12,802 nucleotides of DNA. Origin: a bacterium (GTDB taxonomy: Bacteria > Coprothermobacterota > Coprothermobacteria > Coprothermobacterales > JAADFF01). This document shows positions 174-12,802 of this stretch, in pieces (within the stretch, counting starts at the first letter, position 1; each line of letters opens with the position of its first letter). A program made the position numbers and the translations under genes. The stretch spans positions 1 to 12,802 of the forward strand of contig JAMORD010000015.1 of NCBI GenBank assembly GCA_027063755.1. The letters are read 5' to 3'. The notes under the pieces were generated by a model, which worked only from the letters and a program-made list of their open reading frames with translations, searched no databases and had not been told where the DNA came from.

Positions 174-180
174 GGGGTGA
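174..180 (+). promoter_or_regulatory. Ribosome binding site deciding the start of the first gene
   Basis: GGGGTGA lies just ahead of an in-frame GTG at 186 and overlaps the GTG at 177. This favours 186 over the longer reading as the start of the NuoC-like gene. Confidence 0.5.
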
Positions 181-185
181 TAGAT

Positions 186-596
186 GTGGGCTTTCCAAGG
201 GAGTTTTTAGATGCCTATAAAGAAAAGATGGTGCCCCGAAAGGGGAGTGAGAAGGACTTTATTGTAGAGGTAGAGAGTATCTCCGAATTGTTTGCCATTA
301 TTGACAGCTTTATAGTCAACAAAGTCAGACTTATCACTATTACATGTTATCCAGAGCCTAAGGGAGACAGATTGTTTTTAGAGTATCACTTTACCGATGG
401 GCCCGGTGTCATTTCACTGAAGATCCAGGTGCCAGACGATAAGAAAATGCCCTCTCTTACGCCTAAACTTCCCGCTGCTGGTTGGGCTGAAAGAGAGATT
501 ATGGATCTGTTTGCCGTTGAGTTTGAAGGTCATCCCAACCCGGCAAGGCTGCTTATTCCGGAACATGTACAGCGCGGTGTCTATTTAAGGTCATAA
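186..596 (+). CDS. mbhK: Hydrogenase subunit K, NuoC/30-kDa-like
   Basis: This is the 136-residue peripheral subunit homologous to complex I NuoC (30 kDa) and to the N-terminal part of HycE. In group 4 hydrogenases it docks on the large subunit and helps hold the catalytic module to the membrane; it binds no cofactor. The family signature is visible near residues 100-117: G-W-x-E-R-E, then D-L-F and G-H-P, followed by A-R-L-L-I-P. The protein lacks the C-terminal NiFe domain, so K and L are separate genes, unlike HycE or HyfG. A longer reading from GTG 177 is possible, but the ribosome site at 174-180 fits GTG 186 better. It is the first gene of the operon, with 15 bases to the next. Confidence 0.88.
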   Translation: MGFPREFLDAYKEKMVPRKGSEKDFIVEVESISELFAIIDSFIVNKVRLITITCYPEPKGDRLFLEYHFTDGPGVISLKIQVPDDKKMPSLTPKLPAAGWAEREIMDLFAVEFEGHPNPARLLIPEHVQRGVYLRS

Positions 597-611
597 AAGG
601 GGGGAAGGCTG

Positions 612-1688
612 ATGTCTTATAAATTTCCACTTGGACCGTTTCACCCTTCGCTTGAAGAGGGAGAGTACTTTGAGCTGGAGATAGAGGGTGAGGTTATCAA
701 AGAGGTTAAGATCCGTATTGGTGTATCCCATCGTGGTATAGAAAAGCTTGCCACAAAGAAAAACTATATGCAGAATTTGGGACTTGTTGAGCGTGTGTGT
801 GGCATATGCTCTATGCACCACACATGGGCATATGTGCAGTCTGTAGAGAAGGCTCTAGGGCTGCAAGTGCCTGAGAGGGCCGAGTACATCAGGGTTATTG
901 TAGGCGAGCTTGAAAGGTTGCATTCTCACATTTTATGGTTTGGACTTGGAGCCCATGCTATTGGCTTTGATTCTCTTTTTATGTTTCTCTTTGGTATAAG
1001 AGAGGCTGTTATGGATGTACTTGAGGCCATATCGGGCAACCGTGTCAACTATGCCATCAATACTATTGGTGGAACAAGAAGAGATATCACAGATTCTGAC
1101 ATGATACTGAAAATGCTTGACGAGCTTGAGAAGAATGTTGCCAAGGCAGTTGATGTTGTTCTCAATGATAAGACTTTCCGTATGAGAACCGAAGGAGTAG
1201 GTAAGATGACGCCCCAGCAGGCATATGAGTGGGGTGTGCTTGGTCCTACGCTGAGGGGAACAGGAATCAAGTCTGATATCAGAATAGATGCTCCGTATAG
1301 TGTGTATCCCGAGCTGGAGTTTGAGGTGCCTGTAGTAGATGATGGTGATGTCTTTGCCCGTGCTGTTGTCAGAGCCCTTGAGGTACTGGAGTCAATCAAG
1401 ATTATTAGGCAGGCACTAAAGAAAATGCCATCTGGACCATACAGAATACCAAGGGTACCACCTGTTGTTGCCCCAGCCGAGACCATAGCAAGGGTTGAAG
1501 CCCCTCGTGGTGAGTTGATTTATCACCTTATCTCTAATGGAACAAACAAACCACACAGGTTGAAGATAAGAACACCTACCATTATGAATTTGCCAGCCCT
1601 TGCTGAGATGATGAAAGGTGCTTCTATTGCCGATGCACCACTGCTTGTGCTTCATATTGACCCATGTATGTCTTGCATGGATAGATAA
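612..1688 (+). CDS. mbhL: [NiFe]-hydrogenase large (catalytic) subunit, group 4 Mbh type
   Basis: The 358-residue large subunit, homologous to NuoD, carries the active site for proton reduction to H2. Both nickel-binding motifs are intact: R-V-C-G-I-C with Cys63 and Cys66, and D-P-C-M-S-C with Cys352 and Cys355. The H-R-G-I-E-K motif near residues 40-45 is also typical of the family. Four cysteines argue for a real hydrogenase, not an MBX/MBS-like sulfane reductase or a complex I subunit, which lack the full set. The protein stops three residues after Cys355, so there is no C-terminal maturation peptide to cleave; CooH and EchE are known to share this. The ATG is set by a strong AAGGGGGG site just upstream. 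The gene sits between the NuoC-like gene and the Mrp block. Confidence 0.95.
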   Translation: MSYKFPLGPFHPSLEEGEYFELEIEGEVIKEVKIRIGVSHRGIEKLATKKNYMQNLGLVERVCGICSMHHTWAYVQSVEKALGLQVPERAEYIRVIVGELERLHSHILWFGLGAHAIGFDSLFMFLFGIREAVMDVLEAISGNRVNYAINTIGGTRRDITDSDMILKMLDELEKNVAKAVDVVLNDKTFRMRTEGVGKMTPQQAYEWGVLGPTLRGTGIKSDIRIDAPYSVYPELEFEVPVVDDGDVFARAVVRALEVLESIKIIRQALKKMPSGPYRIPRVPPVVAPAETIARVEAPRGELIYHLISNGTNKPHRLKIRTPTIMNLPALAEMMKGASIADAPLLVLHIDPCMSCMDR

Positions 1689-1694
1689 GGGGGG
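1687..1694 (+). promoter_or_regulatory. Ribosome binding site deciding the MnhE start
   Basis: AAGGGGGG directly abuts ATG 1695 but lies six bases before GTG 1701. The same AAGGGGGG block with similar spacing precedes the large-subunit gene, which supports GTG 1701 as the start. Confidence 0.5.
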
Positions 1695-1700
1695 ATGGCT

Positions 1701-2204
1701 GTGAAAGGGAAGGCATTTATAGGAATCTTTATCTGGGCATTTATCCTGTGGCTTCTACTGACTATGTCTTTGAATGTGTGGGAAGTTGTAACGGGATTGC
1801 TTATTGCCCTATTTGCCGCTTTTGCCGGTTCTTCTATGCTTGCCGAGACAAGATGGGTAGAGGTGTTGGTAAATCCTGTTAAATGGCTTGGATTCATTGC
1901 CTACCTTGTTGTGCTGTGGGTGGAGATTGTAAAGGCTTCTGTAGATGTGTGGATGAGGGCTATGGGACTGAAGAAACCCGATGTGGATGCCGGGGTGGTT
2001 GCCATACAGGTACCCAATGAGTCTGTAGAGTCTATGGTGATGCTGGCAAATTCTATAACACTGACACCGGGTACCATCACGGCAAAGATAGAGCCAGAGA
2101 AGAAAACGCTATATATTCACTGGATTGCCGTTGGCGATAAAGAGAAATGGTATGAGGATATTGCCGCTGCTCTCAATCGCGGTGTAAGGAGGGTTTTGCC
2201 ATGA
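1701..2204 (+). CDS. mbhA: Mrp antiporter subunit MnhE-like (MbhA)
   Basis: A 167-residue membrane protein of the MnhE/MrpE family. Two or three hydrophobic segments occupy the first ~80 residues (I-F-I-W-A-F-I-L, then G-L-L-I-A-L-F-A-A-F-A), followed by a soluble C-terminal domain. The signature N-S-I-T-L-T-P-G-T, typical of MrpE, is present. In Mrp antiporters and Mbh this subunit is part of the cation-translocating membrane module. The ribosome site abuts ATG 1695, so I prefer GTG 1701; ATG 1695 adds two residues. The stop overlaps the next start as ATGA, which suggests translational coupling. It is unusual only in following K and L directly instead of starting the operon. Confidence 0.9.
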   Translation: MKGKAFIGIFIWAFILWLLLTMSLNVWEVVTGLLIALFAAFAGSSMLAETRWVEVLVNPVKWLGFIAYLVVLWVEIVKASVDVWMRAMGLKKPDVDAGVVAIQVPNESVESMVMLANSITLTPGTITAKIEPEKKTLYIHWIAVGDKEKWYEDIAAALNRGVRRVLP

Positions 2205-2458
2205 GTGTATGGGGTTACATGTTTATTGGACTGATAGTGCTCTCTATTCCCATGCTGTATATTGTGTTTACCGGCAAGACCATACTGGAAAAACTTGCTG
2301 CCCTTGATACCATAGGTGCTATGGGCATTGCCGCTCTTATGATGTTTGCCGCATATTCAGGTAGGAATATATATATGGATATAGCTCTGACATTGGCTAT
2401 GCTTGATTTCCTTGGTAATCTTGCCTTTGCCCGCTTTATTGCAGGGAGGTGGAACTAA
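2201..2458 (+). CDS. mbhB: Mrp antiporter subunit MnhF-like (MbhB)
   Basis: An 85-residue hydrophobic protein of about three transmembrane helices, matching the size and character of MnhF/MrpF. The middle segment L-A-A-L-D-T-I-G-A-M-G-I-A-A-L aligns in style with the conserved MrpF helix carrying an acidic residue (Asp37 here). It belongs to the Na+/H+ antiporter module of the hydrogenase. AAGGAGG lies about eight bases before the ATG, and the start overlaps the preceding stop as ATGA. Its stop shares one base with the next ATG (TAATG). Assignment rests on motif style plus the fixed E-F-G-D-E-B-C Mrp order around it. Confidence 0.88.
   Translation: MSVWGYMFIGLIVLSIPMLYIVFTGKTILEKLAALDTIGAMGIAALMMFAAYSGRNIYMDIALTLAMLDFLGNLAFARFIAGRWN
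2445..2451 (+). promoter_or_regulatory. Ribosome binding site deciding the MnhG start
   Basis: GGAGGTG lies six bases before ATG 2458, and the upstream in-frame GTG 2449 is inside this site, so ATG 2458 is the start. Confidence 0.7.
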
Positions 2459-2781
2459 TGGATATATATGCCTATATCTCGTTTGGCTTTGCCTTCTTGT
2501 TTCTTATAGGGGCTGTTGTTGGGGTGTTTCGCTTTAAAGACGGTTATCAGAAGATGCAGGCTGTTACTATTGCAACAAGTATGTCAATGTTCTGGTTTGC
2601 TCTTGGTGTTGCCCTCTACAGCATGGATATAACTACGGCTGTGAAGGCACTGCTTGTATATCTCTTTATGCTAATCACATCTGCTGTGTCTTCCAACATG
2701 GTTGTTAGGGCATCGCTTGAGGCTGGCATTAAAGTGGAGGGAAAAATCAACCTCTTTACAGAGGGTGGTGATGAGCAATGA
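2458..2781 (+). CDS. mbhC: Mrp antiporter subunit MnhG-like (MbhC)
   Basis: A 107-residue protein with three hydrophobic helices, in the MnhG/MrpG family. The order F-A-F-L-F-L-I-G-A-V-V-G-V-F-R-F, then D-G-Y-Q-K-M-Q-A-V-T and a third helix K-A-L-L-V-Y-L-F-M-L-I-T-S-A-V-S is typical: MrpG has R-x-x-D-x-Y-x-R-x-H-A between helices 1 and 2. Here the arginine and histidine of that loop are replaced by Lys and Gln. It forms part of the cation-transport side of the complex. The start shares one base with the MnhF stop, and its own end overlaps the next gene as ATGA. Confidence 0.88.
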   Translation: MDIYAYISFGFAFLFLIGAVVGVFRFKDGYQKMQAVTIATSMSMFWFALGVALYSMDITTAVKALLVYLFMLITSAVSSNMVVRASLEAGIKVEGKINLFTEGGDEQ

Positions 2782-3020
2782 TTTATGTACATATAGGTGT
2801 TGTAGCCCTAATGGCACTTGCCGCCATATATATACTGTTTAGCAACAACAATCTTTACAATGTTGTTGCCCTTGAGGTTATTGGTGTGCTTGCCGTTTTG
2901 GAATTTTTGCTTCTTCATGCTCCCGATGTGGCCATTGCCGAGGCCGCTGTTGGAGCTGTTCTTACCCCATTTGTGTTTCTTGTTGCCATACGCCTCACAA
3001 AGAGAGGTGAAGAGAGATGA
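2778..3020 (+). CDS. mbhD: MbhD-like subunit (MrpA C-terminal domain, first part)
   Basis: An 80-residue membrane protein matching the part of MrpA that Mbh complexes encode separately as MbhD. The signature A-P-D-V-A-I-A-E-A-A-V-G-A (about residues 48-60) is the conserved helix in the D domain. Roughly three helices are present: an N-terminal one, a second around residues 28-46, and a third around 55-73. It sits next to MbhE, as in archaeal mbh operons, and both overlaps are ATGA type. In Mrp and Mbh structures this region lies near the proposed ion path, but no transport role can be read from the sequence alone. Confidence 0.87.
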   Translation: MIYVHIGVVALMALAAIYILFSNNNLYNVVALEVIGVLAVLEFLLLHAPDVAIAEAAVGAVLTPFVFLVAIRLTKRGEER

Positions 3021-3313
3021 TGAGAAAAATTGTTGTTACCGTGGTATTAATAGTCATTTTCTTCTATCTCGGGCTTAGCCTGTATAGCGTGAGAACATTT
3101 GGTGACCCAATGGGGGCCACATATGTCGGTATGCATATTCTTAAAGATGCTATAGGGAGAACGCATGCCTCTAATGTGGTGACTTCTATTGTGTTTGGAT
3201 ACAGAGGATATGACACATTGGGTGAGGCAACGATATTCTTTGTTGCCGTTCTTGGTTTCTACTGGACTATCTCCCGTATGAAAGGGGGGAAGAAAAGTGA
3301 CCATAGTAGCTGA
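3017..3313 (+). CDS. mbhE: MbhE-like subunit (MrpA C-terminal domain, second part)
   Basis: A 98-residue membrane protein matching the E part of MrpA. One helix lies near residues 4-24 (V-V-T-V-V-L-I-V-I-F-F-Y-L-G-L-S-L), then a polar stretch with T-H-A-S-N-V-V-T-S-I-V-F-G-Y-R-G-Y-D-T-L-G-E-A-T, and a C-terminal helix. The N-V-V-T-x-I-x-x-x-Y-R-x-x-D-T-x-G-E pattern is the conserved core of this domain in Mrp and Mbh. It starts inside the MbhD stop (ATGA) and its 3' end runs 17 bases into the MnhB-like gene, the longest overlap in the operon. Confidence 0.88.
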   Translation: MMRKIVVTVVLIVIFFYLGLSLYSVRTFGDPMGATYVGMHILKDAIGRTHASNVVTSIVFGYRGYDTLGEATIFFVAVLGFYWTISRMKGGKKSDHSS

Positions 3314-3731
3314 TAAGACAGCAAGACTGCTGTATCCTTTCATACTTGTATTTGGTGCTTATGTCATCATACACGGGCATCTGACACCAGGTGGAGGTTT
3401 TCAAGGTGGTGTAGCCATTATAGGTGCCCTTGCCCTTGTATACCTTGCTATGGGAATGAAAGCAGTTCACAAGTATGTATCGCTCCGAAGTCTGACAGTT
3501 GCAGATAGTCTTGGTGCTCTTCTGTTCTTGCTATGGGCATTTTTGGGGCTTGTATACACTGGCTATTTCTTTGGAGACTTTGTGGGTAAGCTCTGGGGTG
3601 ATGGAACATTTAGAAGCTTGCTCAGTAGTGGTGTTATAGCTTTGATGAATATATCCGTTGGTATAAAGGTGCTTGGTGGTGCTGGAGAAATTGTTGTTGG
3701 ACTGGTAAAGGGGGTGAGTGCCGATGCTTAG
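3297..3731 (+). CDS. mbhF: Mrp antiporter subunit MnhB-like (MbhF)
   Basis: A 144-residue membrane protein of the MnhB/MrpB family with about four helices. The family motif H-G-H-L-T-P-G-G-G-F-Q-G-G is at residues 26-38 and is essentially invariant in MrpB. A second helix block G-A-L-L-F-L-L-W-A-F-L-G-L follows, then a C-terminal segment I-S-V-G-I-K-V-L-G-G-A-G-E that is also typical. It begins with GTG, seven bases after an AAAGGGGGG ribosome site that lies within the end of the MbhE gene. It belongs to the ion-translocating module. Confidence 0.93.
   Translation: MTIVADKTARLLYPFILVFGAYVIIHGHLTPGGGFQGGVAIIGALALVYLAMGMKAVHKYVSLRSLTVADSLGALLFLLWAFLGLVYTGYFFGDFVGKLWGDGTFRSLLSSGVIALMNISVGIKVLGGAGEIVVGLVKGVSADA
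3708..3717 (+). promoter_or_regulatory. Ribosome binding site deciding the MnhC start
   Basis: AAGGGGGTGA ends six bases before ATG 3724. The upstream in-frame GTG 3718 directly follows the site and leaves no spacer, so ATG 3724 is preferred. Confidence 0.6.
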
Positions 3732-4071
3732 TGTTATCTTTTACGGTATCCTCATGGTGATGTTTCTCTTGGGACTAGCCGTTTTACTGCTGTCAAAGAA
3801 TGCCATTAAGGCTGTTATGGGACTTGGTGTAATGACAACGGCACTCAATGTGTTTCTTGTATCGCTTGGCTATGTCAAAGATGGTACTGCTCCAATATTC
3901 TTTGATATTGACTTTACAACAAAAGCTGCCGATCCTATTCCGCAGGCCCTTACACTGACATCTATTGTTATTGACATTGCACTGACGGCTTTGGCACTTG
4001 GGTTTGTTGTGTATCTGTTTAAGAAGACAGGATCTGTAGATCTTCGTGATATGAGGAGGTTGAGGGGATGA
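3724..4071 (+). CDS. mbhG: Mrp antiporter subunit MnhC-like (MbhG), NuoK homologue
   Basis: A 115-residue protein of three helices, homologous to MrpC and complex I NuoK. The diagnostic motif D-P-I-P-Q-A-L-T-L-T-S-I-V-I-D is at about residues 70-84 and is a hallmark of MrpC. NuoK-like subunits sit between the antiporter modules and carry helix-embedded charged residues in the hydrophilic axis. I chose ATG 3724 on the ribosome site; GTG 3718 would add two residues. It overlaps MbhF by eight bases and the next gene by four (ATGA). Confidence 0.92.
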   Translation: MLSVIFYGILMVMFLLGLAVLLLSKNAIKAVMGLGVMTTALNVFLVSLGYVKDGTAPIFFDIDFTTKAADPIPQALTLTSIVIDIALTALALGFVVYLFKKTGSVDLRDMRRLRG

Positions 4072-7000
4072 TGGGCTTCTTAGGACTTGGTGATCAGTGG
4101 GTATCACTGCTTATAGTGTTTCCATTACTTGGTGCCTTTCTCATACCGTTTGTATATGCTTTTGTGAAGAATAAAAAGATATCTGCATGGATAGCCATAC
4201 TTACCACAGGTGCTGGCCTTGTGGTGGCGATAGACACGCTTATGAAAGTGGTTAGTGGACACACTATAGAGGTTATCATGGGTGGTTATATGCCTCCTAT
4301 GGGTATCAACTGGAAAGTAGATATCTGGGGAGCTCTACTTACAACACTTATATACTTCATAGGCTTTCTTGCCACCATATACTCCATGGGATATGTTAAA
4401 AAAGATAAGTGGGTTCAGTATTTTGCCACTATGCAAGTTATGATTGCCGGTGCAGTAGGTGTGGCTATGACAGGTGACCTATTTAACATGTTTGTATTCT
4501 TAGAGGTTGCATCTATCTCGGCATACATACTTGTGTCTACAGAACCTGAGGCATCTACACTTGAGGCTTCATTTAAATACCTTGTGCTTGGTAGCATGGC
4601 CACCTCTTTCATACTGCTTGGTATTGGTCTACTATATGGTGCATACCATACACTAAACATATATGATATTGCCTCTAAGATAGGGGCACATCCTATGCTT
4701 GATATTACCGCTATTGCACTGCTTCTTGTTGGTCTTGGTGTTGAAGGTGCAATGTTCCCGCTAAATAGCTGGCTTCCCGATGCACATCCATCTGCTCCAT
4801 CTCCCATCTCCGCTATGCTTTCAGGTACTCTTATTAAGATTGGACTTGTTGGAATTGTCAGGGTTTTGATTATGGTGAAGAATACACCTTACTTTGACAG
4901 GATTCTTTTTATTCTTCTTGTGTGGGGTATAACGACATCCTTGTGGGGAGAACTTTCTGCCCTCAGACAGAAAGATATTAAGAGGATGCTTGCTCATTCT
5001 TCTTCTGCCCAGATGGGTTATATCGTTGCTGCACTGTCTACATTTACTCCTGTTGGTATTGCCGCAGCACTGATGCATATGCTTGTGCATGCTTTATCTA
5101 AGGCACTTCTGTTTATGTCTGCCGGTAGCATGATAGAGGGTAGACATACAAGGGATATTGAAGGTCTTAGAGGCAGTGGAAGGAATCTTTCTGGTACTAT
5201 GTTTGGTGTTGGTGTACTTTCTCTTGTGGGGCTTCCACCACTGCCTGGTTTCTTCTCTAAGTTTCTTATCCTTGTATCTGTGTATCAGAAATGGGGACTG
5301 ACACCTGTCATATTTATATTGTTGATTACAATTGCCGAAGTCTTTTATTATCTTAGAACAACAGCTGTTATCTTTGATGTAGGTGAAAAGATAAAAGAAA
5401 ACGGTTATATACTTTTTTCAACCATTTTACTTGGTATTACCGTGATAGTGCTTGGCTTTATGCCCCATGTGCTGGAGCATATTGCCACTGTAGGAAAAGA
5501 TACATTGGCAGCATCGGTACTTCCTTATACCTCTCTTATGCCATCGGGTAATTTATTTATAGCAATAAGCTGGCTACTTGGTGCTGCAGTGATATGCCTT
5601 ATTCCCGGCCTTAGAATTGTGGGGATATTGCTTGGTATTGGTGCCGGTGGCTATGGCGTATATACCATGCTCGGTGCTACGGTACCAGCTGTGGTGTCTG
5701 TGCTTGCCTACCTTGCCGTGTTTGGGATTGTGTTTGCACATATGCAGGGTGATGGTAAGGCAGATGGTGTTAAAGATGCCCTTCTGTTTGTGGCATTTGC
5801 CTCACTGATGGCTGTGCTAAATACAAATAGCATGTTTGTTGTTCTGTATTTCTGGGAGCTTATGAGCGTGATGGCGTTCTTCATGTTCCTTACAGAACCT
5901 CGCAGGGCTATGAGTGGTGTTAATTATTCCACCATGATGACAGCTTTTTCTTATATCTTCATGCTGGGTATCGTTGTTCTGTATGTTAATACAGGTAGCT
6001 ATGAGACGGCAAAACTTTCATATGTATTTGCTGCAATCCTTATAGGTGTGGCCATGTCACTTAAACTGGGTGTGTTCCCATTCCATGTATGGGCAGAGTA
6101 TGGATATAAAGAGGCGCATCCCGTAGTTGCCGGCTACCTGTCTGGTGCTGTTTCCAAGGTAGCATTCTTCCTACTGTTTATAGCAGCTGCTTATGCCACA
6201 TTGCCTGCCAAGTTAAACTATATTCTTATACTCCTTGCTGGCATTTCCATTGTGTGGGCTGGTTATAGGGCCATTGTTGCCGATGATCTTATGGGAATAT
6301 TGGCATATTCTTCTATCAGTCAGATGTCTTATGTCCTTGCCGGTGTGCTTATCGGCGGTGCTGCTATGAGTGGTGCATGGCTTCATGCACTGGGTCATGC
6401 CGTATTTGAAACGGGATTGTTTATTGTTGCCTATGTGATACTTCTCATATATGGCACCACAAAGATAGATGAGCTCAAGGGTAAAGGTGGGGTGCACCCT
6501 GCCATATTCTACCTTTCCATAGTCTTGTTTATGTCACTTGCCGGTGTGCCACCACTATCTGGATTCGTATCTAAATGGCTTATGTATCAGGGAGCACTTG
6601 ATGGTGGATTTGGACTTGTTGCAGTGCTCATGATGATTGGTTCTGCCATGTCCATGATGTATGGTCTGAGGTTTATCATTGCCCTATCTGGCAAGCCCCA
6701 GAAAGGTGGAGAGCTTTCTATTGTGCCACTTACTATATATGCTCTTATCACCTTGGGACTGGGTATCTATCCATGGCCTTTCTTTGAAAAGCTGTCTGTT
6801 GCCCTTGCACCATTTAAAGTAAATGTTCCACTGACATGGAAAGAGCTTGTGCTTGGTACATCTGGCGGTGGAAAGTATACAGCTCTAATGATTATTACCC
6901 TATTTGTGCTGTCGTTTATCTTATTCCTGATATTCTACGCTCTATCTGCACCAGCAAAGAGAAAAGGCAAGGTATTCAGAGGTGGTACTTTCTACGAACC

Positions 7001-7217
7001 TACCGATGAAAATCTACCAGCTCTTGGTGATATGTTGTGGCCTATGGGACATGTTGGTCAGTATATTTCATACTTTGATACATGGCACGAAGGGGTTGCC
7101 GTTTTTACGCAGACAGCTGCCGATGTACTTAGAGGGGTATACACAGGATATCTACCCGACTATGCACTATATGTCTCTATCACCCTGGCAGTAGTGCTAA
7201 AACTTGCACACATATGA
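4068..7217 (+). CDS. Fused double antiporter subunit: MnhD/NuoL-like H + second H' module + MbhI-like tail
   Basis: One 1049-residue membrane protein with two proton-antiporter (Proton_antipo_M type) modules in tandem. Module 1 spans about residues 10-475. It has Glu146 in the F-L-E-V-A-S helix, W-L-P-D-A-H at 235-240, Lys257, the L-R-Q-K-D-I-K-R-M-L-A-H-S-S motif at 299-312 and Lys345 in H-A-L-S-K-A-L-L-F. Module 2 spans about 495-908, with Glu597 in F-W-E-L-M, Lys666 in S-L-K-L-G-V-F-P-F-H-V-W, Lys697, A-Y-S-S-I-S-Q-M-S-Y at 746-755 and Glu781. A C-terminal region (about 935-1049) has a helix, then G-G-T-F-Y-E-P, an amphipathic stretch and a last helix, resembling MbhI and the NuoL tail. 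Mbh usually has separate H and I; MBX has two separate antiporters. No stop or frameshift separates the modules. Starts at ATG 4068 or 4071. Confidence 0.9.
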   Translation: MMGFLGLGDQWVSLLIVFPLLGAFLIPFVYAFVKNKKISAWIAILTTGAGLVVAIDTLMKVVSGHTIEVIMGGYMPPMGINWKVDIWGALLTTLIYFIGFLATIYSMGYVKKDKWVQYFATMQVMIAGAVGVAMTGDLFNMFVFLEVASISAYILVSTEPEASTLEASFKYLVLGSMATSFILLGIGLLYGAYHTLNIYDIASKIGAHPMLDITAIALLLVGLGVEGAMFPLNSWLPDAHPSAPSPISAMLSGTLIKIGLVGIVRVLIMVKNTPYFDRILFILLVWGITTSLWGELSALRQKDIKRMLAHSSSAQMGYIVAALSTFTPVGIAAALMHMLVHALSKALLFMSAGSMIEGRHTRDIEGLRGSGRNLSGTMFGVGVLSLVGLPPLPGFFSKFLILVSVYQKWGLTPVIFILLITIAEVFYYLRTTAVIFDVGEKIKENGYILFSTILLGITVIVLGFMPHVLEHIATVGKDTLAASVLPYTSLMPSGNLFIAISWLLGAAVICLIPGLRIVGILLGIGAGGYGVYTMLGATVPAVVSVLAYLAVFGIVFAHMQGDGKADGVKDALLFVAFASLMAVLNTNSMFVVLYFWELMSVMAFFMFLTEPRRAMSGVNYSTMMTAFSYIFMLGIVVLYVNTGSYETAKLSYVFAAILIGVAMSLKLGVFPFHVWAEYGYKEAHPVVAGYLSGAVSKVAFFLLFIAAAYATLPAKLNYILILLAGISIVWAGYRAIVADDLMGILAYSSISQMSYVLAGVLIGGAAMSGAWLHALGHAVFETGLFIVAYVILLIYGTTKIDELKGKGGVHPAIFYLSIVLFMSLAGVPPLSGFVSKWLMYQGALDGGFGLVAVLMMIGSAMSMMYGLRFIIALSGKPQKGGELSIVPLTIYALITLGLGIYPWPFFEKLSVALAPFKVNVPLTWKELVLGTSGGGKYTALMIITLFVLSFILFLIFYALSAPAKRKGKVFRGGTFYEPTDENLPALGDMLWPMGHVGQYISYFDTWHEGVAVFTQTAADVLRGVYTGYLPDYALYVSITLAVVLKLAHI

Positions 7218-7222
7218 TTGGA

Positions 7223-7230
7223 AAGGGGTG
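7223..7230 (+). promoter_or_regulatory. Ribosome binding site deciding the NuoH-like start
   Basis: AAGGGGTG lies a few bases before ATG 7234 and GTG 7237. The longer in-frame reading from TTG 7204 has no site of its own and would overlap the previous gene, so it is rejected. Confidence 0.6.
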
Positions 7231-7233
7231 GTG

Positions 7234-8139
7234 ATGGTGAACATATATATCACATATATCCTATTGGGCGTATTGCTTCCGCTGATTGCCCTTTTGTATG
7301 ATGGTATAGAAAGGAAGATGACAGCTCGTATTCAAGGTAGGGTTGGACCGCCTATTACCCAGTCTTGGCTTGACTTTATCAAACTTCTTACTAAGAAGGT
7401 GAAATTGCCTGAAGATACAAATATGCTTATGCTTTTTACCGGACTTGTGCTAATGTTTGCAGGGGCCTTTATACCACTAATTATGGTCTTCATGAGAAAA
7501 GGTGATTTGATACTGCTTATGTATCTAATGGTAGGTGGTACTCTGGGGATACTCCTTACCGGTCTTGCGTTTCGTAGTCCATATAGCCGTGTTGGTGTAT
7601 CCCGTGAGATGCAAATGGCATTTGCCTATGAGATATCTTTTATATTTGCCATTGTCATTACCATTATGGTGACGGGCTGTCGTACACTTGAATCTTGCAA
7701 TGTTTCTTCTATACCACTTGTAAAATGGCCGCTGCTTCTCATTCCGTTTATTCTGTTCTTGTTTGTGGCGCCTGCCAAAGTGGGTGTTGTTCCTGTGGAT
7801 ATTGGTGAGGCAGAGAGTGAAATAGCAGAAGGTCCCTTTGTGGAGATTGGAGGAAGATATCTTGCCATAGCCAAGCTCTCAAAGAGCATGAAAATGCTTG
7901 CCCTGATGCAGCTGATAACACTCTTGTATCTGCTTCCTGCTGATGTTACCGGTATATGGTACTGGATTTATTCTTTCGTTATAGATGGTGTGCTTGTGTT
8001 CTTCACCATATCTGTGGTGAGAAATGCTGCCAGTAGAATAAAGATAGACCAGGCTGTAAAGTTTTATGCTACGGTGCCACTTACCATAGGTATCATAGGA
8101 CTTGTTATTGTATACCTCATGAGGGGGTGGGGAATGTGA
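7234..8139 (+). CDS. mbhM: Membrane subunit M, NuoH (complex I subunit 1)-like
   Basis: A 301-residue integral membrane protein of about eight helices, homologous to NuoH and HycD. It anchors the peripheral hydrogenase arm to the membrane and carries the chain of charged residues thought to link the redox site to the ion pumps. The N-terminal E-R-K-M-T-A-R-I-Q-G-R-V-G-P-P block (residues 26-40) is diagnostic. The acidic loop at 187-204 keeps Asp189, Glu192, Glu194, Glu196, Glu199 and Glu204, as in group 4 hydrogenases. It begins 16 bases after the fused antiporter gene, the widest gap in the second half of the operon. Its stop overlaps the next start as GTGA. GTG 7237 is an alternative start. 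Confidence 0.93.
   Translation: MVNIYITYILLGVLLPLIALLYDGIERKMTARIQGRVGPPITQSWLDFIKLLTKKVKLPEDTNMLMLFTGLVLMFAGAFIPLIMVFMRKGDLILLMYLMVGGTLGILLTGLAFRSPYSRVGVSREMQMAFAYEISFIFAIVITIMVTGCRTLESCNVSSIPLVKWPLLLIPFILFLFVAPAKVGVVPVDIGEAESEIAEGPFVEIGGRYLAIAKLSKSMKMLALMQLITLLYLLPADVTGIWYWIYSFVIDGVLVFFTISVVRNAASRIKIDQAVKFYATVPLTIGIIGLVIVYLMRGWGM
8121..8129 (+). promoter_or_regulatory. Ribosome binding site deciding the small-subunit start
   Basis: GAGGGGGTG lies six bases before GTG 8136, which overlaps the preceding stop as GTGA. The in-frame GTG 8127 falls inside the site and is therefore unlikely to be used. Confidence 0.6.
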
Positions 8140-8627
8140 GTTTGTGGAGTTTGCTGTTTGACCCAGACAATTCTATTTGGGTATACCGTATTAATGCCGG
8201 TTCATGTAATGGTTGTGAAATAGAGACAACACCACTATTTACCCCACGATATGATGCCGAGAGATTTGGTATCAAATGGGTGGGCACACCAAGACATGCC
8301 GATGTTGTACTTGTTACTGGACCTGTTACCGCTGTAGCCAAAGAGAGTGTTATGGAAGTGCTTTCCCAGGTGCCAGATCCCCATGTTGTTATAGCTATAG
8401 GTTCCTGTGCTGTATCAGGTGGTGTGTTTAGGGGGAGCTATGCCCTTGAAGGACCCCTTGATAATTTATATCCTGTTGATCTCTATGTGCTGGGGTGTCC
8501 ACCAAAGCCTGAAGGGATACTTACAGCTCTTCTTGAGGCTAAGAAAATACTAAAGGCAAAGAGAAAAGGTCAACATCAGGAGAAACCACTTGTGGTTGAT
8601 CCTGCAGGGATGGTGATGGGGCGATGA
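8136..8627 (+). CDS. mbhJ: [NiFe]-hydrogenase small subunit J, NuoB-like
   Basis: The 163-residue small subunit, homologous to NuoB, holds the proximal [4Fe-4S] cluster that hands electrons to the NiFe site. All four ligands are visible: Cys24 and Cys27 in G-S-C-N-G-C-E-I-E, Cys91 in A-I-G-S-C-A-V-S-G-G, and Cys121 in L-G-C-P-P-K-P. There is no twin-arginine signal and no extra C-terminal cluster domain, so it acts on the cytoplasmic side, as in other group 4 enzymes. The start is GTG 8136 by ribosome-site position. It is separated from its partner L by nine genes, but lies beside N. The last codons overlap the next gene as ATGA. Confidence 0.95.
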   Translation: MSLWSLLFDPDNSIWVYRINAGSCNGCEIETTPLFTPRYDAERFGIKWVGTPRHADVVLVTGPVTAVAKESVMEVLSQVPDPHVVIAIGSCAVSGGVFRGSYALEGPLDNLYPVDLYVLGCPPKPEGILTALLEAKKILKAKRKGQHQEKPLVVDPAGMVMGR

Positions 8628-9202
8628 AGGTTGGAGTAATACTGAAACACATATGGGAAAATCTATTTACAGAACCTATGACGAAGAAGTTTCCGAAGGA
8701 ACCTGTACAGTTGCCAGAAGGTTTTAGAGGTAGGGTTGGCTATATACCTGAAAACTGCATCATGTGTAATATGTGTGTGCTGAACTGTCCCGCAAATGCC
8801 ATAGAAATCAAGCCTGAAGAAGATGGTAAGCGTTGGACACTCCACTATGATAGATGTTTAAACTGCATGATATGTGTAGAGGTGTGTCCTGTAGAGGCAC
8901 TTTACAATGATGACAAAGAACCGTTTAGGGTGGTAACTGACAGGATCAATGCCATAGAGACAGGTAAAGTGCCCATGGTGTCTTGCCCTATATGTGGTAA
9001 AAAGGTGCCAAGACCCTCTAATACAATGGTAAAGCGTATGATGAAAGAAGTTACACCAAGGAATCTTTTAAAGGCAGCGGTATGTCCTCAGTGCAAAAAA
9101 GATCATAAACCTGAAGAGATAGATGCCATCATAGATAAGATTCTTGAAGAAGGTTCCTATCCCGATATGGATAAACTTCTGGGTAAAGAGGGGTTAGAAT
9201 AG
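8624..9202 (+). CDS. mbhN: Ferredoxin-like electron-input subunit N, NuoI/HycF-like, with extra CxxC pair
   Basis: A 192-residue polyferredoxin subunit. Two classical [4Fe-4S] motifs are visible: Cys45, 48, 51, 55 (C-I-M-C-N-M-C then C-P) and Cys78, 81, 84, 88 (C-L-N-C-M-I-C then C-P). These would pass electrons from soluble ferredoxin to subunit J. A C-terminal region adds C-P-I-C (121, 124) and C-P-Q-C (154, 157), a spacing like a zinc ribbon or rubredoxin-type metal site; related cysteine tails occur in HycF-like proteins. No NAD- or flavin-binding domain is present here or nearby, consistent with ferredoxin as donor. It is the last gene of the operon, about 25 bases before a terminator. 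Confidence 0.93.
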   Translation: MKVGVILKHIWENLFTEPMTKKFPKEPVQLPEGFRGRVGYIPENCIMCNMCVLNCPANAIEIKPEEDGKRWTLHYDRCLNCMICVEVCPVEALYNDDKEPFRVVTDRINAIETGKVPMVSCPICGKKVPRPSNTMVKRMMKEVTPRNLLKAAVCPQCKKDHKPEEIDAIIDKILEEGSYPDMDKLLGKEGLE

Positions 9203-9226: not shown

Positions 9227-9250
9227 GGGGAGCTTAGGCTCCCCCTTTTT
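9227..9250 (+). terminator. Intrinsic terminator of the hydrogenase operon
   Basis: GGGGAGC at 9227-9233 pairs perfectly with GCTCCCC at 9238-9244 around the loop TTAG, followed by a T-run at 9246-9250. It lies about 25 bases after the stop of the ferredoxin-like gene, so it ends the operon and separates it from the accessory genes. Confidence 0.92.
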
Positions 9251-9264
9251 GTCCTTTTTATGTA

Positions 9265-9270
9265 TATAAT
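9265..9270 (+). promoter_or_regulatory. Possible -10 element for the accessory gene pair
   Basis: A perfect TATAAT lies between the operon terminator and the next gene, about 36 bases before its start. No good -35 hexamer is found at 16-18 bases upstream; the T-run of the terminator occupies that area. The position fits a separate promoter for the two accessory genes. Confidence 0.4.
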
Positions 9271-9292
9271 AAGAAAAATATCAATGATAGTT

Positions 9293-9297
9293 GGAGG
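9293..9297 (+). promoter_or_regulatory. Ribosome binding site deciding a TTG start
   Basis: GGAGG lies eight bases before TTG 9306. The in-frame TTG at 9291 overlaps the site, so 9306 is the likelier start of the following gene. Confidence 0.65.
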
Positions 9298-9305
9298 CGG
9301 GTTTA

Positions 9306-9965
9306 TTGCCATTCTTAAGTGAGATATTGGGTAATGGTAAAATAGTAAGAGAAACCGTTGGTGAATGGATTGCATATGTAGATGTGTGGTTATCTTTTAC
9401 TGAGGAATCGAGTGGGAAATCGGATTGGATAAATTGGGAGTTGTTTTGGTATGATTATGTAGGATTTTTAAGAATGGAAGATTCACGAGCTGTTTTTAGA
9501 AATTTGCTAGATATTTGTTTTAATAAAAGACATGATGTTGTTAGAGATATATGCGAGTTGTCGTATTTGGGAAAAATATATCAGTTTTCTATTTTTTCTG
9601 TTGTTGTTTCACAAAGTGAGTATAAGTATGGTAAAAGCTTGCTTATGGAACGAGAAGGATTTTTTAAAAACTTGTATTTACAAGGTAAGCCTGAAGAAAA
9701 TAAAAAAGAAAAAGGTGTTGGGAAAAAAGGGGAATTTATTGAAGAGATAGAAGAGTATCTACGAATTTGGGCAAAATTGCTTGCTTGTAGTAGTAATAGC
9801 AACCAAGTGTTTGCTGATTTGGGGATATCTCTATATCAGAGAGTTGGTTTAATATTAGATAATGTTCCGTGTATGAAGCCTTTTATTTACCATGGAGGCT
9901 CAGATGAAACAAATATTTTTGGTAGAGGTGTGAAAATTTATCCTCTGCTGAGGAGAGGGCTATAA
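9306..9965 (+). CDS. Unrecognised 219-residue protein, first gene of an accessory pair
   Basis: I do not recognise this protein. It starts at TTG 9306, set by GGAGG at 9293-9297. The N-terminal half (about 1-125) is rich in Trp, Phe and Tyr (for example W-I-N-W-E-L-F-W-Y-D-Y at 41-51) and looks mainly helical. A Lys/Glu/Gly linker at about 128-143 follows, then a second helical part (E-E-I-E-E-Y-L-R-I-W-A-K-L-L-A). There is no signal peptide, clear membrane helix, Walker motif, nuclease motif or cysteine cluster. The stop shares one base with the next ATG (TAATG), so the two genes are very likely co-translated and may form a complex. Codon use is A+T-rich, unlike the operon to the left. Confidence 0.75.
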   Translation: MPFLSEILGNGKIVRETVGEWIAYVDVWLSFTEESSGKSDWINWELFWYDYVGFLRMEDSRAVFRNLLDICFNKRHDVVRDICELSYLGKIYQFSIFSVVVSQSEYKYGKSLLMEREGFFKNLYLQGKPEENKKEKGVGKKGEFIEEIEEYLRIWAKLLACSSNSNQVFADLGISLYQRVGLILDNVPCMKPFIYHGGSDETNIFGRGVKIYPLLRRGL

Positions 9966-11263
9966 TGATTCGTCGATGTATTAATGATATAGAGAAATTT
10001 ATAAAAAGTAAAGAAGAGTTATGGCATTCTGTTATAAAGGATGAAGAATTCGAAAGAAAATTTTCCAAAGGAGTAGTAGCTTTGCTTGTTGAAAATGGTA
10101 ATCCTGAAAATGGGCTGATGGACCGTATTGGTAGTTCTGAATTTGGGAAGGAGGAAGTGATTAGCCTTTATAAGATGTGGTTAACTGGGGATCTATGGAA
10201 GATTCTTTTAGCAGAACCAGATAGGCTATGGGAGTTAGTAGAGGAAGATCAGAAAGTAGAGGAAGATCAGAAAGTAGAGGAAGATCAGAAAGTAGAGGAA
10301 GATCAGAAAGTAGAGGAAGATCAGAAAGTAGAGGAAATTCAAGACCATTTATATAGCTTGATTGAAAATGCCTCTGCTAGTTTAGAAGAATATTGTGCTT
10401 TTATGAGTCTTATCGTTTTGTATAGTTTGTTATATAACAATAACTTTGATAACACTAAATTGTCTGGTAATTTAGTGAAGAAGGTTGAAGTTCTTTATAC
10501 TAAATTTTGTTCTAAGCTTTGCATAGAGCATAGGGTAGCAGAGGAAAATAACATTGTGTATTTATTACATTTATGGTGGCTGAGTATCAAGTTATTCTAT
10601 AAAGAGCGTTCTGAAAATAACGTTCCTAATAGTTGTAAAGGAGAAAAAAAGGAAAAATGTACATTTTGGTTTTATCTTTTTGTGTTGGATGATAAAGAAG
10701 AAGAAAATTTTTCTCAGTGTTGGCTATGTCTTGATATCGATGATATTTTATCTTATTTTTCAATTGACTCAGAATGGAAAAATAAGATACAGAAAAAGAA
10801 ATTAAAGATAGAAGAGATATGGAAGAGGAACTCTCCAGGGGAAAAAAGAAATATTCTAACTTTGGGTGTGTTGAGTTTGTTAAGTTCTATGCATAAATAT
10901 CTGGAAATAGCAAAAGATACTGGTTCTCAACGTTCTTTCAATTCCAACTATGAGCTTTGGGGAAAAAATTATGGATATACTGACAAGTGGATTAGGATTG
11001 TTGGTGGTAGATTAGCAATAGAGCTATTTTTCTTTTTATCTTTCTTTCAGTATTCGCGGGACACAAAACAAAAGAAATATATAGATACTTTATTTAAAAT
11101 ATCTTATTCTGAACTTGTTAGTTTTATTTTGTATCTTATAGCTACTAGTGAAGAAATACAATTTATAGAAAAACGATCAACAGGTGTTGAAAGTTATGAA
11201 AGAGTATGGCGTAATTTGCTAGGTTATATAAATAAAGTGTTTTGCAGCTTCTTAACTTGCTAA
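9965..11263 (+). CDS. Unrecognised 432-residue protein with five VEEDQK repeats
   Basis: I do not recognise this protein. It is Lys/Glu-rich and appears mostly helical. Residues 1-91 form an N-terminal part; residues 92-121 are five perfect copies of the hexapeptide V-E-E-D-Q-K, with a degenerate sixth (V-E-E-I-Q-D); residues 128-432 form a larger domain with short hydrophobic runs (about 350-361 and 384-395) that look buried, not clearly membrane-spanning. No enzyme motif is visible. ATG 9965 is preceded by AGGAGAGGG and overlaps the stop of the preceding gene by one base. The stop overlaps by four bases with the stop of the opposite-strand NTPase gene. The gene is intact within the window. 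Confidence 0.78.
   Translation: MIRRCINDIEKFIKSKEELWHSVIKDEEFERKFSKGVVALLVENGNPENGLMDRIGSSEFGKEEVISLYKMWLTGDLWKILLAEPDRLWELVEEDQKVEEDQKVEEDQKVEEDQKVEEDQKVEEIQDHLYSLIENASASLEEYCAFMSLIVLYSLLYNNNFDNTKLSGNLVKKVEVLYTKFCSKLCIEHRVAEENNIVYLLHLWWLSIKLFYKERSENNVPNSCKGEKKEKCTFWFYLFVLDDKEEENFSQCWLCLDIDDILSYFSIDSEWKNKIQKKKLKIEEIWKRNSPGEKRNILTLGVLSLLSSMHKYLEIAKDTGSQRSFNSNYELWGKNYGYTDKWIRIVGGRLAIELFFFLSFFQYSRDTKQKKYIDTLFKISYSELVSFILYLIATSEEIQFIEKRSTGVESYERVWRNLLGYINKVFCSFLTC
10238..10345 (+). repeat. 18-bp in-frame tandem repeat, five perfect copies plus a partial one
   Basis: The unit GTAGAGGAAGATCAGAAA occurs five times without a mismatch at 10238-10327, followed by a degenerate copy to 10345. The unit is a multiple of three, so gain or loss of copies keeps the reading frame and changes the protein by six residues (VEEDQK) per step. 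The lack of any substitution among copies suggests recent expansion. Confidence 0.95.
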
Positions 11264-12802
11264 TTTCTGATAATTGTTTCTATAATTTTCTTAGTATTTT
11301 TAATTAGGGGGGATGGGGCTTGATTGAGAATATAAGATGGAACGTCTAAATTAGTAATCTTGATGTTGCTGCTCTCATTTGTACATTCTTCTAGTATCTC
11401 AATTATTAGGTTAGTATATTTGGTAAAATTATTTACTGTAAGTAAATAATCCAATAAAAAAATATGTTTAATGGACAGATTTATTGAATTGTTGGTACTT
11501 TCGCATAAAAGATGCTTGATGAGCAATTTTTGCTCAATGTCTGGTATGGAGGAAACCCATAACCAAAGTTTGTTGTTCTTCTGTATGTTTTTATAGTCTT
11601 TGTCACTATAATAAGGGTAGAGGTTAATAGTTTTCTCTAATTCCTTAGTAAATGGGTTTGATGCTATGAAATCTTTTAACTTCCAGTCTTGGTTTTTTGC
11701 ATATTCTGGGGAGAGAAAGGTGTATATTGATGTTAACCAAAAAATTATAGAGTTAATTGATTTATTTGTAAATTGTTCAATAGATTTTAGTTCGTCTAGG
11801 ATAAGAACAAGATCATTGATGGAGGTTACGTTTCTAATAGCTAGTATAGTTGACAATATTATGTAGGCTGTATCCAATTTTCTCGTTATTTTATCTTGTT
11901 GTTGGCTTAGATTTTCTTCTTGTCGTAATATTTGTTGCAATATCTTTTCTTTTATGATTTTTATTTGTGGCTTTAGCTGGAGAGACTTATTTATGATTTT
12001 CTTTATATCCCTATATGTTAGGAAATGAAAACTAGAATGCGTTATGGTTTGAAATGTCTTTTCAACAATATTAGATATTTCGTTGTCTCCTAGTGAAATA
12101 TTTAAATATTTCTTAATTAATTTGTCTTCTTGGTTAATAATTTTTTTTATGGCTTCTGCGGTGCTAAAAGCACCTATTGTAGGGATTATATATGTTATAT
12201 CAAATAACTTTTCTAAAGTGTTATTTACTATTTCTGCTGATAAGTTGTGAGGGGGGTGTTGTTTAATTACTTTTAAAATATTCCCTATTGGTACAATAAA
12301 AGTTACAGTGTTTAAAATGTCTGGCGTAGGTGCTATACTTTCAAAAGATGAAAAAACTCTTATGATTCTGATAGCGTCAAGGAGCTTATCTGGAGGTATT
12401 CTGTCCATGTCTTCGATTACAATAACAATATTGCTAAAGTTTCTTTTTCTTACTTCTTTTATTATTTCTATGAATGCCAGCTTGAATTCATATGTGTTGT
12501 CTTCGATGTTATTCGTGTTTTCTTCATACGAAACCTCCTTTGTGTATTTAAATAGTACTTCTATGATTTCGTTTTTGTGTGTAATTACTAGATAGCTTGT
12601 TAAAAATAAAGACATTGAAAAAAGTATAATGTAAGGTTTTTGGATCAAAAGAAATATTGTCTGTAAAAAAGAGAATGTTGGCAAGATCATTCCTAGCGTT
12701 ATCCCTATAGGCAAAGTAGCGAGAAGTGTGAATAATAAGAAGCGTTTTTCTTTTGATGATTGTTTTAATGATTCTGATGTTATTGTAATTGTGATTGTAA
12801 CA
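11260..12802 (-). CDS. KAP/YobI-like membrane P-loop NTPase, C-terminal part (5' end beyond the window)
   Basis: The frame is open from the window edge at 12802 to the TAG at 11260-11262, giving 513 visible residues; the true start lies further right. Two hydrophobic segments come first (about visible residues 21-50 and 57-74), then a Walker B-like strand I-V-I-V-I-E-D-M-D-R ending in Glu130, Asp131, Met132, Asp133 and Arg134, followed by I-P-P-D-K-L-L-D-A-I-R-I-I and a sensor-like strand V-T-F-I-V-P-I-G. This order, membrane helices ahead of a D/E-D-x-D-R Walker B, is typical of KAP-family NTPases, in which the helices are inserted between Walker A and Walker B; Walker A would lie outside the window. 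The remaining ~350 residues are helical and Lys/Ile/Asn-rich, without a recognised domain. KAP members include PifA of plasmid F, which excludes phage T7, so defence is possible but unproven. Confidence 0.72.
   Translation of the reverse strand, partial: VTITITITSESLKQSSKEKRFLLFTLLATLPIGITLGMILPTFSFLQTIFLLIQKPYIILFSMSLFLTSYLVITHKNEIIEVLFKYTKEVSYEENTNNIEDNTYEFKLAFIEIIKEVRKRNFSNIVIVIEDMDRIPPDKLLDAIRIIRVFSSFESIAPTPDILNTVTFIVPIGNILKVIKQHPPHNLSAEIVNNTLEKLFDITYIIPTIGAFSTAEAIKKIINQEDKLIKKYLNISLGDNEISNIVEKTFQTITHSSFHFLTYRDIKKIINKSLQLKPQIKIIKEKILQQILRQEENLSQQQDKITRKLDTAYIILSTILAIRNVTSINDLVLILDELKSIEQFTNKSINSIIFWLTSIYTFLSPEYAKNQDWKLKDFIASNPFTKELEKTINLYPYYSDKDYKNIQKNNKLWLWVSSIPDIEQKLLIKHLLCESTNNSINLSIKHIFLLDYLLTVNNFTKYTNLIIEILEECTNESSNIKITNLDVPSYILNQAPSPLIKNTKKIIETIIRN

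What the first reader, a model, noticed from the sequence alone, without database searches (positions are those of the whole stretch)
9251..12802. A+T-rich locus of two orphan genes facing a KAP-type NTPase: candidate defence or conflict system
Composition changes abruptly after the operon terminator. Two translationally coupled genes of unknown family meet a membrane-linked P-loop NTPase tail to tail. KAP NTPases occur in phage-exclusion contexts (PifA), and small orphan genes beside large NTPases are a usual layout of uncharacterised defence loci. I recognise no effector domain in the pair, so this is a hypothesis.
Basis: inference. Interest (0 to 1): 0.6.

Follow-up and report, generated by a model that had tools for sequence, protein, structure and literature searches.

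The report
AT-rich island: KAP NTPase, orphan pair
Beside a hydrogenase operon in a fragmentary bacterial genome lies an A+T-rich stretch that its sister species lacks, carrying half of a membrane NTPase of a type known from phage defence and a coupled pair of genes with no detectable relatives, so it is probably an accessory island, though nothing ties the three genes into one system.

Summary
After the terminator of a [NiFe]-hydrogenase/Mrp-type operon (window 9227-9244), G+C falls from 44% to 31%. Two coupled ORFs follow (ORF1 9306-9965, ORF2 9965-11263, overlapping TAATG) and run into a convergent gene at 11260. That gene is a genuine KAP-family NTPase, cut by the contig end: transmembrane pair, Walker B and C-terminal motif are present, but Walker A lies off the contig and was not found in the bin.

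The site is variable: the sister genome is 87% identical up to 9252, then has an unrelated gene. ORF1 and ORF2 are ORFans: no credible match in Pfam, NCBIfam, PHROGs, PADLOC, PDB, plasmids, phages, viral contigs or 386 genomes. AlphaFold models were unusable (pLDDT about 37).

The interpretation (one defence system) is only partly supported. KAP NTPases do act in defence, and two distant relatives sit inside type I restriction operons. But co-occurrence of the pair with the KAP gene is untestable without relatives. Most likely this is an accessory conflict-type island whose KAP protein works like PifA/Tmn/QatA; whether the pair is its partner is open. A RADAR-like locus was noticed elsewhere in the genome.

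The parts
9227..9244 (+). intrinsic terminator of the hydrogenase operon; last feature shared with the sister genome (identity ends at 9252)
9293..9297 (+). Shine-Dalgarno-like GGAGG before ORF1
   Evidence: sequence
9306..9965 (+). ORF1, 219 aa, TTG start, no transmembrane segment predicted; ORFan
9965..11263 (+). ORF2, 432 aa, coupled to ORF1 (TAATG), acidic (net charge -14); ORFan
10237..10336 (+). perfect 18-bp tandem repeat, 5.6 copies, coding for VEEDQK units inside ORF2
11260..12801 (-). KAP-family P-loop NTPase, C-terminal 513 residues; 5' end with Walker A lies beyond the contig end
12601..12738 (-). two hydrophobic, probably transmembrane segments (residues 22-40 and 49-67 of the fragment) inserted in the NTPase domain ahead of Walker B
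12397..12429 (-). Walker B region IVIVIEDMDRI

Best explanation
The stretch after window position 9252 is part of an accessory, probably horizontally acquired island at a variable chromosomal site. It carries (1) a membrane-anchored KAP NTPase, most likely acting in conflict with mobile elements as PifA, Tmn and QatA do (NTP-driven assembly at the membrane that inactivates or excludes an invader), and (2) an independent, translationally coupled two-gene operon of ORFan proteins that probably form a complex. Shown: the island boundary, the KAP family, the TAATG overlap and the ORFan status. Inferred: horizontal origin, the defence role, complex formation, and that the pair is a separate unit rather than the KAP partner.
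For: Sharp composition and codon-usage change. The sister genome is 87% identical up to 9252 and then has a NAGPA-family gene that is absent from this bin; more distant relatives have tilS-like genes after the same operon. The KAP match is supported by PADLOC QatA and by alignment to full-length KAPs, which themselves match PifA and QatA models. Two distant relatives sit inside type I restriction operons with RhuM and HsdS. KAP proteins have shown anti-phage roles: Tmn, with two TM domains (PMC11846954), and QatA within qatABCD (PMC13279940). The same genome carries another A+T-rich island with a RADAR-like locus.
Against: KAP NTPases are widespread and not all are defensive. The relatives are remote (about 19-26% identity). 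No tRNA, integrase or element end is seen at the junction. The bin holds neither a recognised missing KAP half nor the far flank. In qatABCD, QatA is not required against some phages (PMC13279940).
Confidence: 0.5

Rival explanations
1. ORF1, ORF2 and the KAP NTPase are one three-gene conflict system: the pair senses or is the effector, and the KAP protein is the membrane-bound motor.
For: Adjacent, with stop codons overlapping by two bases, all in the same A+T-rich island. Multi-gene systems with a KAP ATPase and a helical protein of unknown family exist (QatA-QatB; PMC13279940).
Against: Convergent rather than co-directional. No relative of ORF1 or ORF2 was found beside the dozen KAP loci examined. 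No relatives of the pair were found in any collection searched, so conservation of the association is untestable.
Confidence: 0.2
2. Remnant of a mobile element (plasmid, provirus or integrative element) whose cargo includes a KAP NTPase without a defence role; the pair are element genes.
For: A+T-rich, ORFan-rich, absent from the sister genome at this site.
Against: No credible match in PHROGs, phage, plasmid or viral collections; no integrase, replication or structural gene in the 3.5 kb visible.
Confidence: 0.22
3. Assembly or binning artefact: sequence of another organism joined after the operon.
For: The genome is a 251-contig assembly, 88% complete; the junction coincides with the end of identity to the sister genome and there is no second copy to check it.
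Against: The operon terminator is intact and ORF1 starts about 60 bp after it with its own ribosome-binding site; the junction falls in an intergenic gap, where a true insertion would be tolerated; a second island of similar composition (about 34% G+C) lies between stretches of higher G+C on contig C61.
Confidence: 0.07

Closest known systems
PifA (F plasmid, exclusion of phage T7) and the KAP P-loop NTPase family (Pfam PF07693)
   Same: KAP NTPase core with transmembrane segments inserted ahead of Walker B, Walker B followed by DR, C-terminal R..N motif
   Different: About 19-26% identity to relatives; Walker A half missing; C-terminal region not matched to any family; below Pfam's own cut-off on its own
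Tmn (single-gene defence, KAP NTPase with two transmembrane domains)
   Same: Same domain plan: KAP NTPase with two TM segments; transcribed on its own as far as visible
   Different: No close sequence relationship shown; Tmn itself was not compared residue by residue
qatABCD (QatA = KAP NTPase)
   Same: QatA is the best PADLOC match of the fragment; QatA is likewise accompanied by a helical protein of unknown family (QatB)
   Different: No QueC-like (QatC) or TatD-like (QatD) gene is visible; the neighbours do not match QatB

Membership tests
KAP P-loop NTPase family | Walker B of the form hhhDDhDR followed by the KAP C-terminal motif (R..N) | tested here: met
   IVIVIEDMDR and RDIKKIIN, key columns invariant with three full-length KAPs; PADLOC QatA E 4.5e-6
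KAP P-loop NTPase family | transmembrane segments inserted between Walker A and Walker B | tested here: met
   two hydrophobic segments at residues 22-40 and 49-67, aligned to the insert of other KAPs
KAP P-loop NTPase family | Walker A (GxxxxGKS/T) | not testable with these tools
   contig ends before it; four of the six other KAP-profile matches in the bin were read and are a uridine-kinase-like, an ArgK-like, a DnaA and a RADAR-like ATPase gene; two weak ones were not read
qatABCD defence system | QatB, QatC (QueC-like) and QatD (TatD-like) beside QatA | tested here: not met
   visible neighbours ORF1 and ORF2 match none of these; genes beyond the contig end are unknown
Tmn / PifA single-gene exclusion | protection against phage by the KAP gene alone | not testable with these tools
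   needs expression of a complete gene
   no relatives of ORF1 or ORF2 found; none beside other KAP loci

The most novel reading that the evidence does not exclude
ORF1 and ORF2 are the sensor and effector of an undescribed KAP-dependent defence system confined to a poorly sampled bacterial lineage, with a length-variable VEEDQK linker in ORF2.
Probability: 0.12. Interest if true: 0.65.

Novelty: new member of a known kind. Interest (0 to 1): 0.3.

Why it matters
If the defence reading holds, it would add a KAP-type membrane NTPase and two new protein families to the conflict repertoire of a small, poorly sampled bacterial lineage, next to a RADAR-like locus in the same genome. As it stands it is a lead: a clear island boundary, one recognisable family and two ORFans whose function cannot be read from sequence.

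Tried and rejected
Structure prediction of ORF1 and ORF2 from single sequences gave unusable models (mean pLDDT 36.7 and 37.7), so no fold search was run. Weak hits were checked and dropped: ORF1 against G370 (E 0.0055) falls in a CysC-like kinase gene; ORF2 against G340 (E 0.007) falls in a metallo-beta-lactamase-like gene; Pfam hits such as Cas2, TraX and DUF6591 are below cut-off, and several hits of ORF2 around residues 92-148 lie on the VEEDQK repeat. I searched the bin for the missing Walker A half of the KAP gene and read four of the six other matches; none is it. I tested ORF1/ORF2 against the 538-aa neighbour of a related KAP gene in L055 and against the RADAR-like genes of contig C61: no relation. 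A phylum search centred on a named locus was not possible because the tool needs a genome handle. The original paper on the KAP family was not held, so statements on PifA rest on general knowledge and on the PADLOC models.

Full report
What is in the window. Positions 177-9202 are an operon for a membrane-bound [NiFe]-hydrogenase with Mrp-antiporter-like subunits: Complex1_30kDa, Complex1_49kDa with both cysteine pairs (ERVCGIC, DPCMSC), MnhE and MnhB, antiporter subunits, NADHdh, Oxidored_q6 and a ferredoxin-like subunit. It ends in a clear intrinsic terminator at 9227-9244. The window is a whole contig, C15, of a 1.5-Mb, 251-contig genome that is about 88% complete. Kin are few: one other genome of the genus, five of the order and two of the phylum among those searched. 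The genome sizes suggest Coprothermobacterota, but that is inference.

The boundary. After the terminator G+C falls from 43.6% to 30.8%, codon preferences change in most families and the + strand becomes strongly G-rich. The sister genome G001 is 87% identical over the compared part of the operon and its terminator, up to window 9252, and then continues with a NAGPA-family gene that was not found in this bin (the bin is incomplete). In three more distant relatives the operon is followed, after a short ORF at most, by a gene that looks like tilS. So the site is variable and the A+T-rich stretch is an insertion or replacement, although no integrase or tRNA marks its end.

The pair. ORF1 (9306-9965, TTG start behind GGAGG) and ORF2 (9965-11263) overlap as TAATG. 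Both are much longer than open frames in simulated sequence of the same composition. Neither protein has a credible match in Pfam, PADLOC, NCBIfam or PHROGs, the PDB, plasmids, phages, viral contigs or 386 whole genomes, nor has ORF2 in one degenerate scan of GTDB species contigs. That scan needs a near-exact eight-residue stretch, so distant relatives could be missed. AlphaFold gave no usable model. ORF2 is acidic and contains a perfect 18-bp repeat, 5.6 copies, which codes for VEEDQK units; the identity of the copies suggests recent expansion.

The NTPase. The convergent gene (11260-12801, minus strand) is open to the contig end. It matches PADLOC's QatA (E 4.5e-6) and, weakly, Pfam KAP. Searching 386 genomes and the GTDB contigs with it brought a dozen distinct KAP loci. 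Aligned with three full-length members it shows the transmembrane pair, Walker B (IVIVIEDMDR) and the C-terminal RDIKKIIN motif, with about 135 N-terminal residues, including Walker A, missing. The missing half is not among the other KAP-profile matches of the bin that were read. The related proteins also match PifA and QatA models. In two unrelated genomes (L057 and L068) the KAP gene lies inside a type I restriction operon with RhuM and HsdS genes, which supports a defence context for the family, but at low sequence identity.

What it does. KAP NTPases with defence roles include Tmn, with two transmembrane domains and unknown mechanism (PMC11846954), and QatA, which binds DNA, forms heptamers or octamers and affects the phage range of qatABCD without being strictly needed (PMC13279940). 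By that analogy the KAP protein here is most likely a membrane-anchored, NTP-driven exclusion or regulatory factor. Nothing found links it to ORF1 and ORF2 beyond adjacency: they face each other, no other KAP locus examined has relatives of them, and with no relatives at all their co-occurrence is untestable. I therefore treat the pair as a separate two-gene unit in the same island, at moderate confidence.

Elsewhere in the genome. One of the KAP-profile matches led to contig C61, where a second A+T-rich stretch carries an RdrB-like adenosine deaminase (PADLOC RdrB E 4.4e-6; PDB 8fnv/8fnw E 0.0023), a P-loop ATPase and a 549-aa orphan: a divergent RADAR-like locus. It shares no detectable sequence similarity with the genes here, but it suggests that this lineage keeps conflict genes in A+T-rich islands.

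Verdict.

Noticed in passing
G000 contig C61 (locus L072) 1496-6688: Divergent RADAR-like locus in an A+T-rich stretch: RdrB-like adenosine deaminase, a separate P-loop ATPase (Walker A GQRGSGKST) and a 549-aa orphan; looks like RADAR with a split or unusual RdrA.
   Followed up: partly
L057 5127-14159 and L068 5933-13529: KAP NTPases embedded in type I restriction operons, with RhuM, HsdS and HsdM or HsdR genes, in two unrelated genomes; the KAP and HsdS genes overlap by a few bases in both.
   Followed up: partly
window 4068-7217: A single 1049-aa gene holds two antiporter-like (Proton_antipo_M) domains, apparently a fusion of two hydrogenase/Mrp antiporter subunits.
   Followed up: no
window 9251-12802: The + strand is G-rich throughout (skew 0.13-0.58) whatever the gene orientation, so the coding strand of the KAP gene is C-rich.
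   Followed up: no
L055 6112-9616: A 628-aa KAP NTPase is followed immediately by a 538-aa orphan gene on the same strand, another KAP plus orphan pair.
   Followed up: partly
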